Source: Thermoleophilia bacterium
GTDB taxonomy: Bacteria; Actinomycetota; Thermoleophilia; Miltoncostaeales; Miltoncostaeaceae
Assembly (NCBI GenBank): GCA_020438485.1
Contig: JAGQUM010000054.1
Location: forward strand, 1-34,998
Direction of reading: 5' to 3'
Length of the DNA: 34,998 nt
Under the pieces are notes generated by a model, which did no database searches, had not been told where the DNA came from, and saw only the letters and a list, made by a program, of their open reading frames with translations. Positions within the stretch are counted from its first letter, which is position 1. Each line of letters opens with the position of its first letter. The translations under genes were made by a program, and so were the position numbers. Of this stretch, positions 2,744 through 21,662 are shown piece by piece.

Positions 2744-2762
2744 TGACAGAAACAATCTGTCA
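2744..2762. promoter_or_regulatory. operator-like palindrome 1 upstream of the Fic gene
   Basis: TGACAGAAACAATCTGTCA is a perfect 7-bp inverted repeat (TGACAGA/TCTGTCA) with a 5-nt centre. It stands out as AT-rich in a very GC-rich genome. A second, related site lies 138 nt downstream over the Fic start codon, so this is probably a repressor or activator site controlling the Fic gene. Confidence 0.55.
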
Positions 2763-2881
2763 TCGTCGTGGCGACGGCTGCTGGTGGGTTTCCGCCGAGC
2801 GCCGAACGCGTGTGCCCACGGCCACCGGCCTCCCGAGGCTCGTGGTCGGGCCGGCCCGCGATTCGTCCCACCGACGCGTAA

Positions 2882-2900
2882 TGATAGATAATAACTGTCA
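2882..2900. promoter_or_regulatory. operator-like palindrome 2 and -10 box over the Fic start codon
   Basis: TGATAGATAATAACTGTCA matches the upstream palindrome at 14 of 19 positions and has the same TGA-AGA/CTGTCA arms. Its last base is the A of the ATG at 2900. It also contains GATAAT (2887-2892), a good -10 sequence placed so that transcription would begin at or very near the start codon. A leaderless message under direct operator control is the simplest reading. No clear -35 is seen. Confidence 0.55.
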
Positions 2901-4090
2901 TGCCCCCCGTCGATCCGATCTACCCGCCCCCCCTGCTCGACGAACACGAGCGTGGCGTGGTCGCGGCCATCGAGGATCTACGCGAGCGGATGCATGGGTC
3001 GCTCGCCGTGCCCCGCCGCTGGGTCGGGGGGCTTCGGCGCGTCCAGTTCGCCCGCGGGGTCCGGGCCTCCAACAGCATCGAGGGCATCCACGCCTCGCTC
3101 GACGACGTGGTCGACGCGGTCGATGGGCGAGAACCCCTCGAGGCCGGCGAAGAGACCGCCGCCGCCCTGCTCGGCTACCGCCAGGCCATGACCTACGTGC
3201 TGCAGATGGCGGCCGACCCCGCGGCCAGGGTCGACGACGGCATCATTCGCTCGCTTCACTTCATGATGCTGGGACACGAACTGGACAAGAGCCCCGGCGC
3301 ATGGCGCAGGGGGCCGATCTGGGTGCGTGACGGCGCGTCGGGGGCGGAGGTCTACGAGGGGCCGCCCGCCACCGACGTCCCGCGTCTGGTCGACGCGCTT
3401 GTGCTCGCCTTGGCCGACGACGGATCACCACCGATGGTGGCGGGGGCGATGGCCCATCTCAACCTGGTGATGATCCATCCGTTTCGAGACGGGAACGGGC
3501 GGATGGCCCGCTGCCTGCAGACGCTGGTGCTGGCCCGGCGGTCGGTGGTCTCGCCCGTGTTCTCAAGCATCGAGGAGTACCTCGGCCGCAACACCCGCGC
3601 GTACTACGACGTCCTCTCCGAGGTCGGGCGGGGACGATGGAACCCGGGTGCCGACTCGCGCCCATGGGTGCGCTTCTGCCTGACCGCCCACTACCGCCAG
3701 GCGCACACGCACCTGCGCCGCATCCGCGCGACGGAGCAGCTATGGGTGCGCTGCGAGGAGCTCGCGCGCGAGCACCGGCTGCCCGAGCGTGCGGTGCCCG
3801 GGCTGATGGACGCGGCTCGTGGGATGCGGCTGCGAAACGCCGCGTACCGGGCGGCGGTCGCGACGGGAGACGGCGGGGAGATCAACGAGCTCATGGCCAG
3901 CCGCGATCTGAGGGCGATGGTGGGGAGTGGCCTGCTGGTCGCGCACGGCGAACGGCGCGGCCGCCGGTACTCGGCCTCGCCACGGCTGCGCGACGTGGCC
4001 GCCGAGGTGCACGCGGCCCGCCCTGTGCGCAGCGATGTCGACCCGTTCGCCGTGAGCCCCGATCAACTGGTGCGCGACGTCGGGCGCTGA
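2900..4090 (+). CDS. Fic-domain protein adenylyltransferase (class II, self-inhibited)
   Basis: Fic enzymes transfer AMP (or related groups) from a nucleotide to a hydroxyl side chain of a target protein. The core motif HPFRDGNGRMAR is intact at residues 193-204 (catalytic H193, anion-hole GNGR). An inhibitory motif SNSIEG lies at 57-62, N-terminal to the core, which makes it class II: the Glu blocks productive ATP binding until relieved. The C-terminal ~120 residues are basic and helical, ending in a winged-helix-like part (INELMASRDLRAMVGSGLL), as in many Fic-HTH proteins. At 396 residues it is typical of the Fic/HTH family. There is no antitoxin gene beside it, consistent with cis inhibition. 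The two palindromes upstream suggest tight, perhaps autogenous, control. The start is supported by the -10 box and the first residues; no ribosome-binding site is visible. The target is unknown. Confidence 0.9.
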   Translation: MPPVDPIYPPPLLDEHERGVVAAIEDLRERMHGSLAVPRRWVGGLRRVQFARGVRASNSIEGIHASLDDVVDAVDGREPLEAGEETAAALLGYRQAMTYVLQMAADPAARVDDGIIRSLHFMMLGHELDKSPGAWRRGPIWVRDGASGAEVYEGPPATDVPRLVDALVLALADDGSPPMVAGAMAHLNLVMIHPFRDGNGRMARCLQTLVLARRSVVSPVFSSIEEYLGRNTRAYYDVLSEVGRGRWNPGADSRPWVRFCLTAHYRQAHTHLRRIRATEQLWVRCEELAREHRLPERAVPGLMDAARGMRLRNAAYRAAVATGDGGEINELMASRDLRAMVGSGLLVAHGERRGRRYSASPRLRDVAAEVHAARPVRSDVDPFAVSPDQLVRDVGR

Positions 4091-4136: not shown

Positions 4137-5198
4137 TCACCACAGGCCCCGCGACACGAGTTCCTGCTCGAGGTCGGGGCCACCCGGGGTGAGCGAGAAG
4201 TGCGGCGCGACGGCACTGCCGTACTCGGGCCCCTCCCAGCCACACAGCTCCGCGTCGATGGCCCACGGCACGGCCGACGGCACGAGGTCCCGGGCGTCCT
4301 CGTCCCGGCCGGTGGGGGTCCACCTCACGCGGCGGCCGCCGTGCTCGCTGACGAGGACCACCCGGAACGCGGGCCCCTCCTTGTCGTGCACGTGCCGGTT
4401 CTTCACGCTGAGCGCCACGGGCAGCACGTAGAGGGTGTCACCCACCTTGACGATGCCCTCGTCGAGCAGCACCTTCAGGGCGCTGGGCCGCTTCTGGCGC
4501 GACCGGTTCTCGGCGCTCACACGCTCGGCCTGGATGCGCCGGGTGAGGTCGAACTCCTCCTGCGCGGGCAGCGGCAGCAGCCGGTTGACCGTGAGGTGCG
4601 TGTGGTGCTCCTCGTCGCGGTAAAGGCGGGCCTCGATGGCCTCAATGGGCATGCCGTAGACGTCGCCCAGGTATCGCACGTTGTGGAGCACGCGCCGCGG
4701 AAAGCCGGGGGCGATCAGCTTGATGCGCACCTTCTCGCTGGGCTCCCAATCGTCGAAGCCGTCGAGTCCGGCGAACTCGGTGATCTCCTCGCGCGCCGCC
4801 TCGTGGGCGCGCGTACCGTCCTCGTAGCCCTGGCGGCCGCGCCGCATCGACCACTGCGCCAGCGTGTCGGCTAGGTCGTCGGTGGGACGCTGCGAGTACG
4901 CACCCGCGTACGCGATGGCCTGGAGGTCGGTGGTGCGGAAGTCGTCGCTGACCTTCAACTCGATCAGCACCAGCTCGCCGTCGCGATCCACCGCGAGCAC
5001 GTCGAGCCGGTCGCGGTCCTCGTCGAACTCGGCCAGCTGATTGCCCAGAACCAGCAGATCCTCGCCGGCCAGCGCCGGGGTTTCGATGAGCAACCGCTCG
5101 AGCCGCGCTTCGGAGATGAGCCCGCCGAACGGCACCCGCGTGAGGCGCACCGACGCGTCGTCGGTAAGGGTGAGTACCACCGGGTCGAACGTGTTCAT
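4137..5198 (-). CDS. NucS-like (DUF91-type) PD-(D/E)XK nuclease
   Basis: 353 residues. The N-terminal half carries a PD-(D/E)XK nuclease core: Glu-rich helix with LIETPALAG, then D66 in RLDVLAVDRDG, E80-L-K82 in VLIELK, and Q93/Y97 in LQAIAY, the QxxxY element. This order is typical of the NucS/EndoMS and DUF91 families that cut DNA, in some actinobacteria at mismatches. The C-terminal half differs from NucS. It holds a segment (SALKVLLDEGIVKVGDTL, about 239-256) that resembles small domains attached to restriction or modification enzymes, so its DNA target may differ. The start ATG at 5196-5198 has GGAGGG 7 nt upstream, better than the longer frame to 5372. It is convergent with the Fic gene (46 nt apart). 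It is not confidently the housekeeping NucS; a restriction or defence role is possible. Confidence 0.75.
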   Translation of the reverse strand: MNTFDPVVLTLTDDASVRLTRVPFGGLISEARLERLLIETPALAGEDLLVLGNQLAEFDEDRDRLDVLAVDRDGELVLIELKVSDDFRTTDLQAIAYAGAYSQRPTDDLADTLAQWSMRRGRQGYEDGTRAHEAAREEITEFAGLDGFDDWEPSEKVRIKLIAPGFPRRVLHNVRYLGDVYGMPIEAIEARLYRDEEHHTHLTVNRLLPLPAQEEFDLTRRIQAERVSAENRSRQKRPSALKVLLDEGIVKVGDTLYVLPVALSVKNRHVHDKEGPAFRVVLVSEHGGRRVRWTPTGRDEDARDLVPSAVPWAIDAELCGWEGPEYGSAVAPHFSLTPGGPDLEQELVSRGLW

Positions 5199-5326
5199 GT
5201 GTGGACCCTCCCACGGCCGGCCGTGACAGCCAAGACCACGATTGCCGCCGAGGCTGGGCGGCGCGTGGGTGTTCCGCGTCGTCGGCCGGGCGGGCCAGGG
5301 CGACTGCGGCAGGCAGTCGTCCCGCT

Positions 5327-5387
5327 CGGCGCCGACTCGATCGACACGATCGGGCACAGCCACTCGCGCCACTTACGCGACGACGAG
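5327..5387 (+). repeat. copy B of the 61-nt dispersed repeat
   Basis: Matches 2578-2638 (47/61). It lies in the 243-nt gap between the divergent nuclease gene (start 5198) and the unknown gene at 5442, so it may be a control element. No further gene is seen in the gap. Confidence 0.55.
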
Positions 5388-18680: not shown

Positions 18681-18708
18681 TTGCGGGGCGGACGAACCCT
18701 GCTACGGT
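18681..18708 (+). promoter_or_regulatory. promoter of the TetR-MMPL operon
   Basis: TTGCGG (18681-18686) and TACGGT (18703-18708) with 16-nt spacing. The -10 runs into the palindromic operator, so a bound repressor would block polymerase directly. Start of transcription would fall within the palindrome, giving a leader of about 30 nt. Confidence 0.5.
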
Positions 18709-18725
18709 ACGAAACCGTTTCGTAC
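18707..18725. promoter_or_regulatory. perfect 19-bp palindromic operator of the TetR-MMPL operon
   Basis: GTACGAAACCGTTTCGTAC: nine perfectly paired positions on each side of a central C. It overlaps the -10 box and the presumed transcription start, 19 nt before the TetR start codon. Position and symmetry are those of an autoregulating TetR repressor site. Confidence 0.75.
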
Positions 18726-18743
18726 ACCGCACCGATTGGACCT

Positions 18744-19367
18744 GTGTCCACGCCGCCTCCCCACGCGCCCCGCGGCCGCCTTACGGCCGAACGCACCGCC
18801 GAGATCTACGCCGCCGTCATCGCCGAGCTCGCCGAGAGCGGCTACGAGCGCCTGAGCTTCGACAACGTCGCCGAATCCGCCCGGTGCAGCAAGGCCACGC
18901 TGTACCGGCAGTGGGACGGCAAGCTCGACCTCGTGGTGTCGGCGCTGGAGTGCGAAAAGGGCCCGGCCGAGCACCCCGACGCGCCCGACACGGGCTCGCT
19001 GCGCGGTGACCTGCGCGGGTGGGCCGACGCGTTCGTGGCCGACCACAGCCCGGACATCGCGCTGGTGCTGGGCCTCGCCCGGGCGTGCCGCGAGCAGCCC
19101 GAGCTGGCGCAGGCGCTGCACCGGCGCGTGGTGTCCGACGAGGCCGGACGCCTGGGGGCCGCGCTCCGACGTGCCGTCGACCGCGGCGAGGTGCGTGGCG
19201 CCCCGCCCGCGGTCGCCCACGTGGTCTCGGCCATGGCCGGGCCCGCCCTGCTGCACGACATCCTCACCGGCGAGGCCGTGACCGCGGCGTCGCTGCACCA
19301 GTTCATCGACGCCGTGGTGCTCCCCGCGCTCGGCGTGCCCGCAACCGACCAGGGGGACACCGCGTAG
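18744..19367 (+). CDS. TetR/AcrR-family repressor of the adjacent exporter
   Basis: 207 residues. N-terminal DNA-binding domain at about 15-60 (IYAAVIAELAESGYERLSF, then the helix-turn-helix NVAESARCSKATLYRQW). The C-terminal ligand-binding domain is all helical, with residues HQFIDAVVLPAL at the dimer interface. The GTG at 18744 is chosen because an earlier in-frame start would translate the operator palindrome. Its TAG is directly followed by the ATG of the MMPL exporter, so the two genes form one operon that the protein probably represses through the 18707-18725 palindrome until a hydrophobic ligand binds. Confidence 0.9.
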   Translation: MSTPPPHAPRGRLTAERTAEIYAAVIAELAESGYERLSFDNVAESARCSKATLYRQWDGKLDLVVSALECEKGPAEHPDAPDTGSLRGDLRGWADAFVADHSPDIALVLGLARACREQPELAQALHRRVVSDEAGRLGAALRRAVDRGEVRGAPPAVAHVVSAMAGPALLHDILTGEAVTAASLHQFIDAVVLPALGVPATDQGDTA

Positions 19368-21662
19368 ATGGCTTGGCAATTGTTCCGGCTCGGCCGCATG
19401 GCCTACCGCAAGAAGTGGCTGTTCATCGTGGCCTGGGTGGCCATCATTGGCGTCGCGGTGACCAGCGCCGTGTCCTTCAAGGGCACCACGTCCGACAAGT
19501 TCACGCTGCCCGGGCTGGAGTCGACCGACGCGTTCGCCCTCATCAAGGAGCGCACCCCCGACGCGGCGCCCGACGGCGCCAACGGCCAGATCGTGTTCGT
19601 GGCCCCCGAGGGCCAGCGGGTTGACTCCCCCGCCAACAGGGCGGCCATCGCCGAGACGATCAGGATCGTGAAGTCGCCGCACGTCACCAACGTCACCGAC
19701 CCGTTCACCACGGGCGCCGTGTCGAAGGACGGCACCATCGCGTACTCCACGGTGCACTACGACGTGCAGGGCTTCTCGCTTCCCGAGGAGGACACCGAGG
19801 CGCTGAAGTCGGCCGCGGGACCCGGTGAGAAGGCCGGCATGCGGGTGGAGATCGGCGGCAACGCGCTGCAGGAGATCCCCGAGGAGGGCGCCAGCGGCCT
19901 CATCGGCCTGCTGGTGGCCGCGTTCATCCTCAGCATCACGTTCGGCTCGCTGGTGGCCGCCGGCATGCCGGTGGTGACCGCGATCATCGGCGTCGCGGTG
20001 GGCAACATGGGCATCATCGCCGCGTCCGGGTTCGTCGACCTGGGCTCGTCCGCACCCATCCTCGCTTCCATGCTCGGCCTCGCGGTCGGCATCGACTACG
20101 CACTGTTCATCGTGTCGCGGTACCGGCACGAGGTGAAGATCGGCAAGCCGCAGGACGAGGCCGCCGGCATCGCCATCGGCACCGCCGGCAGCGCGGTGGT
20201 GTTCGCGGGCCTCACCGTGATCATCGCGCTGGTCGGCCTGTCGGTGGTCAACATCCGCTTCCTCACCGAGATGGGCATCGCGGCCGCCGCCACGGTGGCC
20301 ATCGCCGTGCTCATCGCCCTCACGCTGCTGCCCGCGCTGTTCGGCGTGGTGGGCAGGTGGATCGTGGGCCTGCGCCTGCCGGGCCTGAAGGAGCAGGATC
20401 CCGACGCGGAGGGCCGCGTCAACACGATGGGCCGCCGCTGGGGCGAGCTGGTCACGCGCAACAAGGCCGCCACGGTGGTGGGCGCGCTGCTGCTGGCGGC
20501 GGTGCTCGCCGTGCCCGCGCTGAGCCTGCGCCTGGCGTTCCCCGACGACGGCAGCCAGCCCGCGGGCAGCGGCCCGCGCGAGGCCTACGACCTCATTACC
20601 GAGGGCTTCGGCGCCGGCGCCAACGGCCCCCTGATGGTGGTGGTCGACGTGAAGGACGCCCCGGACAAGGGCGCCGCGGTGCAGGCCGTGGTCCGGAGCC
20701 TCGACGGCATCAGGACCGACGTCGCGGCGGTCGTGTCGCCCATCCCCGACCCGCCCGACCCCAACGATGCCAAGGCCGTCGCGGAGTACCGCAAGGCCAT
20801 CGCCGACGGCGCCGCGCAGCTCGACAAGAACGGCTACGCCGTGATCACCGTGGTACCCAAGAGCGCGCCGTCCGACGCGGCCACCGAGGACCTGGTGGGC
20901 ACCATCCGCGACACCGCCAAGCCGGTCGCCGAACGCGCCGGCGGCGAGGTGTACGTCACGGGCCAGACCGCCCTGGGCGTGGACGTCTCACACAAGCTGG
21001 CTGCGGTCTTCCCGCTGTACCTGGCGATCGTCGTGGGCCTGGCGTTCGTGCTGCTGACGCTGGTGTTCCGGTCGCTGTTGGTGCCGCTCAAGGCCGTGCT
21101 CGGCTTCCTGGTGTCGGTCGCCGTGGCGCTGGGCGTCACGGTGGCGATCTTCCAGTGGGGCTGGCTGGCCGGCCTGTTCGGCGTCGACAAGGCGGGGCCG
21201 ATCATGGCCATGCTGCCCATCCTGCTGATCGGCATCCTGTTCGGCCTGGCGATGGACTATGAGGTGTTCCTGGTCTCGCGCATGCGCGAGGAGCACGTCC
21301 ACGGGGCGACGCCTCTGGACGCCATCGTCGACGGTTTCCAGCACGGCGCCCGGGTGGTGACCGCGGCGGCGCTGATCATGATCGGGGTGTTCGTGAGCTT
21401 CGCCGTCCTGGGCCCCAACGCCATCGTCAAGACCATCGGCTTCGGGCTGGCGGCGGGCATCATCGCCGACGCGTTCCTGGTGCGGATGACGCTGGTGCCG
21501 GCCGTGCTGGCCATGATGGGCGACCGGGCGTGGGCGCTGCCGAGGTGGCTCGACCGGGTCCTGCCCAACCTCGACATCGAGGGTGAGAGCCTCCGGCGTC
21601 ACCTGGAGGCCGGCGAGGGCGAGCGCCCCCCGGCGTCGCCGCCGGCCCCGGCCGCGGGTTAG
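19368..21662 (+). CDS. MMPL/RND-family exporter
   Basis: 764 residues, full length. TM1 at about 17-36; first periplasmic domain with TTSDKFTLPGLES; a block of helices at about 180-330 holding GIDYALFIVSRYRHE (Asp-Tyr pair of the proton relay); a cytoplasmic loop; the second half repeating the plan with FGLAMDYEVFLVSRMREEH near 630. This is the usual duplicated RND architecture. The C-terminal 40 residues are Pro/Ala-rich. It probably pumps hydrophobic or toxic compounds out of the membrane under control of the adjacent TetR protein. The ATG abuts the TetR stop. Its stop overlaps by 4 nt the stop of the opposite-strand gene. Confidence 0.93.
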   Translation: MAWQLFRLGRMAYRKKWLFIVAWVAIIGVAVTSAVSFKGTTSDKFTLPGLESTDAFALIKERTPDAAPDGANGQIVFVAPEGQRVDSPANRAAIAETIRIVKSPHVTNVTDPFTTGAVSKDGTIAYSTVHYDVQGFSLPEEDTEALKSAAGPGEKAGMRVEIGGNALQEIPEEGASGLIGLLVAAFILSITFGSLVAAGMPVVTAIIGVAVGNMGIIAASGFVDLGSSAPILASMLGLAVGIDYALFIVSRYRHEVKIGKPQDEAAGIAIGTAGSAVVFAGLTVIIALVGLSVVNIRFLTEMGIAAAATVAIAVLIALTLLPALFGVVGRWIVGLRLPGLKEQDPDAEGRVNTMGRRWGELVTRNKAATVVGALLLAAVLAVPALSLRLAFPDDGSQPAGSGPREAYDLITEGFGAGANGPLMVVVDVKDAPDKGAAVQAVVRSLDGIRTDVAAVVSPIPDPPDPNDAKAVAEYRKAIADGAAQLDKNGYAVITVVPKSAPSDAATEDLVGTIRDTAKPVAERAGGEVYVTGQTALGVDVSHKLAAVFPLYLAIVVGLAFVLLTLVFRSLLVPLKAVLGFLVSVAVALGVTVAIFQWGWLAGLFGVDKAGPIMAMLPILLIGILFGLAMDYEVFLVSRMREEHVHGATPLDAIVDGFQHGARVVTAAALIMIGVFVSFAVLGPNAIVKTIGFGLAAGIIADAFLVRMTLVPAVLAMMGDRAWALPRWLDRVLPNLDIEGESLRRHLEAGEGERPPASPPAPAAG

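What the first reader, a model, noticed from the sequence alone, without database searches (positions are those of the whole stretch)
2744..2902. Two matching AT-rich operators flank the Fic promoter, one covering the start codon
TGACAGAAACAATCTGTCA and TGATAGATAATAACTGTCA share 14 of 19 bases and the same dyad, in a genome where AT-rich palindromes are rare. The second contains the -10 box and ends at the ATG. The pair, 138 nt apart, suggests looping or cooperative repression of a toxin-like Fic gene with a probably leaderless message.
Basis: partly seen in the sequence, partly recalled or inferred. Interest (0 to 1): 0.6.

Follow-up and report, generated by a model that had tools for sequence, protein, structure and literature searches.

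The report
Self-repressing Fic gene with twin operators
Two matching short DNA sites sit in front of a toxin-like Fic enzyme gene, one right on its start codon, and comparison with about a hundred related genes suggests that the enzyme's own tail binds such sites to keep its gene nearly silent.

Summary
The two sites are real: S1 2744-2762 and S2 2882-2900, 14 of 19 bases alike, S2's last A being the A of the Fic ATG. TGAYAG-N7-CTRTCA occurs at only these two places in the 2.58-Mb genome. Among 96 close Fic homologs, 41 (10 of 45 clusters at 70% identity) carry the general 19-bp form TGAY-N11-RTCA between -60 and +5, against 0.8 in shuffles and 0-1 in six other stretches of the same loci. Two same-class orthologs have it abutting or covering the ATG, as here; other clades have other palindromes there. 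Operator sequence follows the protein's recognition helix beyond overall relatedness, though weakly. AlphaFold puts a C-terminal winged helix there. No Shine-Dalgarno and a -10 hexamer ending 7 nt before the ATG fit a leaderless message. Best reading: negative autoregulation of a class II, SoFic-like Fic protein by its own winged helix, in the manner of Yersinia CccR but with a compact operator on the -10 and start codon. Looping is untested; S1 is less secure, since an S1-like site occurs in a genome without Fic. No binding was shown.

The parts
2882..2900 (+). S2, proximal operator TGATAGATAATAACTGTCA; contains the -10 hexamer GATAAT (2887-2892) and ends on the A of the Fic start codon
2744..2762 (+). 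S1, distal operator-like site TGACAGAAACAATCTGTCA, 138 nt upstream of S2 (start to start)
   Evidence: caveat
2900..4090 (+). Fic gene, 396 aa: class II pattern (S57-NSI-E61-G62 inhibitory motif, HPFRDGNGRMAR Fic motif), Pfam Fic PF02661, PADLOC SoFic
3785..3979 (+). codons 296-360: C-terminal winged helix-turn-helix (helices 296-306, 313-321, 330-342; wing strands 346-349 and 356-359); recognition helix 330-342
   Evidence: AlphaFold2, mean pLDDT 83.5
2887..2892 (+). putative -10 hexamer GATAAT, 7 nt between its last base and the ATG, so transcription would start at about the ATG
   Evidence: start site inferred, not mapped

Best explanation
The Fic gene is negatively autoregulated. A dimer of the Fic protein binds, through its C-terminal winged helix, the 19-bp dyad TGAYAG-N7-CTGTCA. 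The proximal copy S2 overlays the -10 element, the probable transcription start and the first base of the start codon of a leaderless message, so bound protein blocks RNA polymerase and keeps a toxin-like AMP-transferase at a low level. S1 is probably a second, auxiliary site. Shown here: the sites, their uniqueness in the genome, their recurrence in homologs, the winged-helix fold prediction. Inferred: binding, dimerisation, repression, start of transcription. Not known: what lifts the repression.
For: Pattern at only two places in the genome, both at this gene. General form TGAY-N11-RTCA at -60..+5 in 41 of 96 homologs with tblastn bits >=190 (10 of 45 clusters), shuffle mean 0.8, max 3; other stretches 1 and 1 of 96, 0 and 0 of 95, and 0 and 0 of 96 inside the gene. 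Dyads of any sequence are strongest at centres -40..-20 (mean z 1.43, t 5.8, 55 clusters). Same-class orthologs: L062 TGATAGAAACTATCTATCA directly before ATG, L006 TGATAGAATCTTTCCATCA ending on the A of ATG. Operator similarity follows the recognition helix given Fic-domain similarity (partial Mantel r 0.137, p 0.0005, 45 clusters), not in a control stretch (p 0.15); Fic-domain similarity given the whole winged helix adds nothing (p 0.18). Winged helix predicted. Precedent CccR: footprinted autorepression by a Fic-HTH protein (section read). No Shine-Dalgarno-like string in any of the 25 homologs whose operator centre lies within 22 nt of the start, against 19 of 96 overall.
Against: No binding or expression data. 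55 of 96 homologs do not match the general pattern, and 64 of 116 have no dyad at p<=0.05 in a scan of -100..+6. The helix-operator correlation is small, nearly gone in pairs below the median of Fic similarity (rank r 0.046, 495 pairs; significance not tested), and Fic-domain similarity still correlates given the recognition helix alone (p 0.0005). An S1-like site occurs in a genome without Fic. No + strand promoter with a -35 partner passed the consensus scan.
Confidence: 0.72

Rival explanations
1. The sites bind a different, unlinked regulator (a host repressor of another family), and Fic is only one target or the sole target.
For: A site very like S1 (agreeing from GATTGA to ATCG but for three bases) lies upstream of a NucS-like ORF in G634, a genome with no Fic match at E<=1e-8. 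In 199 same-class genomes 3 of the 5 genomes with TGAYAGA-N5-TCTRTCA have it away from Fic.
Against: In the window's genome the pattern is at no other gene. The site changes sequence from clade to clade of the Fic protein while staying at the Fic promoter, including on plasmids. No regulator gene is adjacent in the window.
Confidence: 0.15
2. S2 is only a promoter with a fortuitous dyad, and S1 a chance or relic copy; no operator function.
For: -10 elements are A+T-rich and can look symmetric; many homologs show no significant dyad.
Against: Recurrence in homologs far above shuffles and confined to -60..+5; the S1-S2 match beats all 30 shuffles; uniqueness in the genome.
Confidence: 0.07
3. 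S1 and S2 together form a repression loop (138 nt), Fic dimers joining as a tetramer (a sub-case of the best explanation).
For: Two matching sites 138 nt apart; 138 nt is about 13 helical turns (own arithmetic at 10.5 bp per turn). L087 also has a second like site 293 nt upstream; 15 of 106 homologs have a homotypic second site at the lowest p, 3.4 expected.
Against: 10 of those 15 second sites lie only 21-47 nt away; TGAY-N11-RTCA at -190..-125 is in 1 of 96 homologs, the window itself; S1-like site in a genome without Fic. Tetramers were not tested.
Confidence: 0.15

Closest known systems
CccR of Yersinia pseudotuberculosis (Fic + HTH; PMC9755527, sections 9 and 10 read (section 10 part 1 of 2), PDB 7XUX)
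   Same: Class II Fic domain plus C-terminal HTH; represses its own gene by binding inverted repeats near the -35 and -10 boxes; found by Foldseek with the window model (7xux, rank 11).
   Different: CccR's footprint is two 10-bp arms 26 bp apart (46 nt); the window's arms are 7 nt apart (19 bp). CccR is a T6SS effector; nothing of the kind was tested here. About 18% identity in the structural alignment.
SoFic / EcSofic single-gene anti-phage defence (PADLOC SoFic; PMC12249575, abstract and passages seen)
   Same: PADLOC SoFic profile E 3.7e-45 over residues 48-363; 3eqx/3zcn are among the best structural matches.
   Different: Below NCBI's SoFic cut-off (49.9 of 550 bits). EcSofic has a small antitoxin gene AS1 downstream; here only 46 nt separate the Fic stop from the end of the convergent ORF. 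The passages seen report no operator for Sofic.
Coxiella burnetii CbFic2 (PMC10628234, passages seen, PDB 8CIL)
   Same: Class II Fic with a two-stranded winged helix that binds DNA.
   Different: Only random DNA was tested there; no operator known.
Type II toxin-antitoxin autoregulation (Phd-Doc and others; recalled)
   Same: Toxin gene repressed by a protein of its own locus bound at the promoter.
   Different: Here toxin-like enzyme and putative repressor domain are one polypeptide; no antitoxin gene seen.

Membership tests
[quoted passage not shown]
   HPFRDGNGRMAR at 193-204; Pfam Fic 49.6 bits, cut-off 24
Class II Fic proteins | Inhibitory motif (S/T)xxxE(G/N) N-terminal to the Fic motif | tested here: met
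   S57-NSI-E61-G62; S57, N58, I60, E61 and G62 invariant in 9 homologs; definition from PMC9755527
SoFic equivalog (NCBI NF046030) | Score above NCBI's curated cut-off | tested here: not met
   49.9 bits, cut-off 550
SoFic defence family (PADLOC) | Profile match over most of the protein | tested here: met
   E 3.7e-45, residues 48-363 on profile 55-355 of 361; no curated cut-off given
SoFic defence family (PADLOC) | Protects against phage | not testable with these tools
   needs plaque assays
CccR-type self-repressing Fic | C-terminal HTH DNA-binding domain on a Fic protein | tested here: met
   predicted winged helix 296-360; 7xux matched
CccR-type self-repressing Fic | Inverted repeats at the promoter of its own gene | tested here: met
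CccR-type self-repressing Fic | Arms 10 bp long and 26 bp apart | tested here: not met
   arms 7 nt apart in S1 and S2; CccR operator
CccR-type self-repressing Fic | Binds and represses its own promoter | not testable with these tools
   needs footprint and reporter
CccR-type self-repressing Fic | Secreted by a type VI system | not tested
   no search made

The most novel reading that the evidence does not exclude
A large, mostly actinobacterial clade of Fic proteins acts as one-polypeptide toxin-plus-repressor modules: each protein recognises a private operator set on its own promoter, often on the -10 and start codon of a leaderless message, and operator and recognition helix diversify together so that the many paralogs do not cross-talk. 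Release of the DNA, for instance during phage infection, would both switch the gene on and free the enzyme.
Probability: 0.3. Interest if true: 0.65.

Novelty: new variant of a known kind. Interest (0 to 1): 0.48.

Why it matters
Self-repression by a Fic-HTH protein is in print for one case that I found, CccR (searches; open-licence papers only). The comparison here suggests that it is common among SoFic-like Fic genes of Actinomycetota and occurs in Gemmatimonadota and other phyla, with short operators that can be read straight from the sequence. This gives a direct, cheap test of how a stand-alone Fic defence or toxin gene is kept quiet without an antitoxin, and hands over natural protein-operator pairs for studying specificity.

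Tried and rejected
Exact reader pattern as the general motif: rejected, it misses S2; a slightly looser form was found at no locus fetched up to other than the window's own. A single conserved operator sequence for all homologs: rejected, half-sites differ by clade. A small antitoxin ORF: the 2349-2899 gap shows no gene-like GC-by-frame pattern (0.69/0.75/0.69 against 0.77/0.51/0.89 in Fic), the ORFs 2393-2746 and 2545-2901 match no Pfam family, and 46 nt lie downstream before the convergent ORF ends. Divergent promoter under S1: one weak minus-strand match at 2763-2735, no convincing gene. Distal second sites as a general rule: rejected. Viral contigs: 2 relatives, not analysed further. Control not made: upstream regions of unrelated genes; the controls were shuffles and other stretches of the same loci.

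Rows dropped: 141 loci (L005-L145) were given to tblastn, 138 got a start; 116 were kept after leaving out 16 named loci with partial matches or unsupported starts, starts within 120 nt of a locus end, and identical 60-nt upstreams; 96 of these have bits >=190; the dyad profile and second-site test used those with bits >=120 and enough sequence (106 tested in the latter); the Mantel tests used 45 cluster representatives, 44 in the control. Loci returned were capped at 30 per search, so one search listed more matches than were fetched, as did. Closely related Streptomycetaceae dominate the 41 loci, hence the cluster counts.

Full report
The observation. The window has TGACAGAAACAATCTGTCA at 2744-2762 (S1) and TGATAGATAATAACTGTCA at 2882-2900 (S2). 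They agree at 14 of 19 positions and each has 14 of 19 self-dyad matches; they are reported as a direct repeat with spacing 138. S2 ends on the A of the ATG of a 396-codon ORF, 2900-4090 +. With CTRTCA it occurs at exactly these two places in the 2,577,976-base genome, and the reversed pattern nowhere. With two mismatches allowed the count is 34 places against 23 for the reversed control, so near misses are mostly background.

The gene. Pfam calls the protein Fic. It has the Fic motif HPFRDGNGRMAR and the class II inhibitory motif S-NSI-EG. PADLOC's SoFic profile matches residues 48-363 at E 3.7e-45, but the NCBI SoFic equivalog cut-off is missed by far. AlphaFold2 on the window protein with eight relatives (mean pLDDT 83.5) gives helices 296-306, 313-321, 330-342 and a two-stranded wing 346-349/356-359, that is, a C-terminal winged helix-turn-helix. 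Foldseek finds Fic structures, some with such tails: 4rgl, SoFic 3eqx/3zcn, CbFic2 8cil, CccR 7xux. The gene is accessory: in 299 genomes of the class, six including the window's own have a match of at least 50% identity over most of the protein, and the one other genome of the genus listed has none.

The sites in relatives. I located starts in 138 of 141 homolog loci and kept 116 with supported starts and distinct upstreams. The general form TGAY-N11-RTCA lies at -60..+5 in 41 of 96 homologs with bits >=190, in 10 of 45 clusters at 70% identity; 30 rounds of dinucleotide shuffling gave a mean of 0.8 and a maximum of 3 loci. The stretches -125..-60 and -190..-125 had 1 of 96 each (S1 itself lies in the latter), -255..-190 and -320..-255 none of 95, and two stretches inside the gene none of 96. 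Examples: L062 (54% identical, same class) TGATAGAAACTATCTATCA directly before ATG; L006 (57%, same class) TGATAGAATCTTTCCATCA ending on the A of ATG; L133 TGACAGGATGATCCTGTCA, with the same arms as here, centre -25; L109 TGACGTAATGATTACGTCA. Other clades have other dyads in the same place: L035 GGAGCAGATATTATCTGCTCC running into ATG, L082 TCTAGACGTTTATTCGAATAAACGTCTAGA, a GTCTC-type set in L089, L092 and others. Over all sequences, dyads are strongest at centres -40..-20 (mean z 1.43, t 5.8 over 55 clusters), weaker at -60..-40 (0.61) and -20..0 (0.45), and at most 0.31 elsewhere, where some bins still reach t 2.6. By a plain scan 52 of 116 have a best dyad at p<=0.05, 64 do not.

Who binds. 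If the Fic tail binds, operator and recognition helix should change together. Over 45 cluster representatives the similarity of the 65-nt promoter stretches correlates with that of residues 329-342 after allowing for the Fic domain (partial Mantel r 0.137, p 0.0005), not in the stretch -250..-185 (p 0.15). The whole winged helix given Fic is also significant (r 0.11, p 0.002), the wing alone is not (p 0.12), and Fic given the winged helix adds nothing (p 0.18). Against this: Fic given the recognition helix alone remains significant (p 0.0005), and in pairs below the median of Fic similarity the correlation is 0.046. I read this as modest support. No regulator gene is adjacent: the upstream neighbour is an AI-2E family transporter, and the convergent downstream ORF has no Pfam match.

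Leaderless start. GATAAT lies at 2887-2892, 7 nt before the ATG, as do TATTAT in L035 and L012 before their starts. Among the 96 homologs a Shine-Dalgarno-like string at -18..-4 is seen in 19 (1 of 96 in a control stretch at -60..-46), but in 0 of 25 with an operator centre closer than 22 nt to the start, 2 of 17 with a more distant one and 17 of 54 with none. So the operator covers the start codon probably because the message begins there.

The second site. Of 106 homologs, 15 have a second copy of their own operator upstream at the lowest p reached (3.4 expected). In 10 of the 15 it lies 21-47 nt away; in 5 it lies further than 100 nt: the window (138), L087 (293, 16 of 19 bases) and L047, L120, L137 with 13-14 matches. 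In a scan of 199 same-class genomes TGAYAGA-N5-TCTRTCA was found in 5: at Fic in the window's genome and in G653 (L062), and in G634, G640 and G664, which have no Fic match at E<=1e-8. The G634 site resembles S1 beyond the pattern and lies upstream of a NucS-like ORF (my reading of the protein, no family search). The form with N7 was searched in eight genomes that carry Fic homologs: G653 and G1261 have it once, at Fic; G218 has it twice, on other contigs than its Fic gene (L153, L154); the other five not at all. S1 is therefore the less secure of the two sites, and looping is conjecture.

Comparison with the known. CccR represses its own gene 3.3-fold through AGATAATCAT-N26-ATGATAATCT near the -35 and -10 boxes, needs its dimer interface for it, and represses independently of toxicity (section 10 part 1 read, section 9 read). 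The window resembles CccR by anatomy, but its operator is compact and sits on the -10 and start codon, so I call it a variant, not a copy. EcSofic was reported to have a downstream antitoxin AS1 (abstract, passages); none is visible here. CbFic2 binds DNA, but only random DNA was tried (passages). Literature searches for Fic operators or self-repression (listings seen) returned CccR as the only direct case; the library holds open-licence papers only.

Verdict. Observation confirmed; interpretation right on operators, start codon and leaderless message as far as comparison can show, open on looping. Negative autoregulation by the protein's own winged helix is the best explanation (0.72).

Noticed in passing
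window 18707-18725: GTACGAAACCGTTTCGTAC, 18 of 19 dyad matches, at the head of a TetR-like ORF (18681-19367 +, true start probably further in) followed by an MMPL-type transporter ORF (19368-21662 +); looks like an ordinary TetR operator (family names are mine by reading, no family search made).
   Followed up: partly
L151 1501-1519 (genome G634): An S1-like site upstream of a NucS-like ORF in a same-class genome without Fic; it shares with S1 the overlapping dyad GATTG-N7-CAATC.
   Followed up: partly
L118, L122, L129, L131, L046 upstream of Fic: Overlapping operator matches at -34 and -26: TGAY/RTCA half-sites repeated every 8 bp, which may allow alternative dimer registers.
   Followed up: no
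L044 2980-4158 (Mycobacterium phage prophiGD12-2, gene 82): A 53% identical Fic gene on a M. abscessus prophage, a few genes from a polymorphic toxin gene (gene 86).
   Followed up: no
L016, L017, L018 upstream of Fic: More distant Fic homologs share a string close to ATCGCTAGCGTTTGAGTGA near the start; L016 and L017 have two copies.
   Followed up: no
window 4137-5372 -: Convergent neighbour of Fic matches PADLOC candidate-defence profiles PDC-S11 (best E 2.9e-30), no Pfam family.
   Followed up: no
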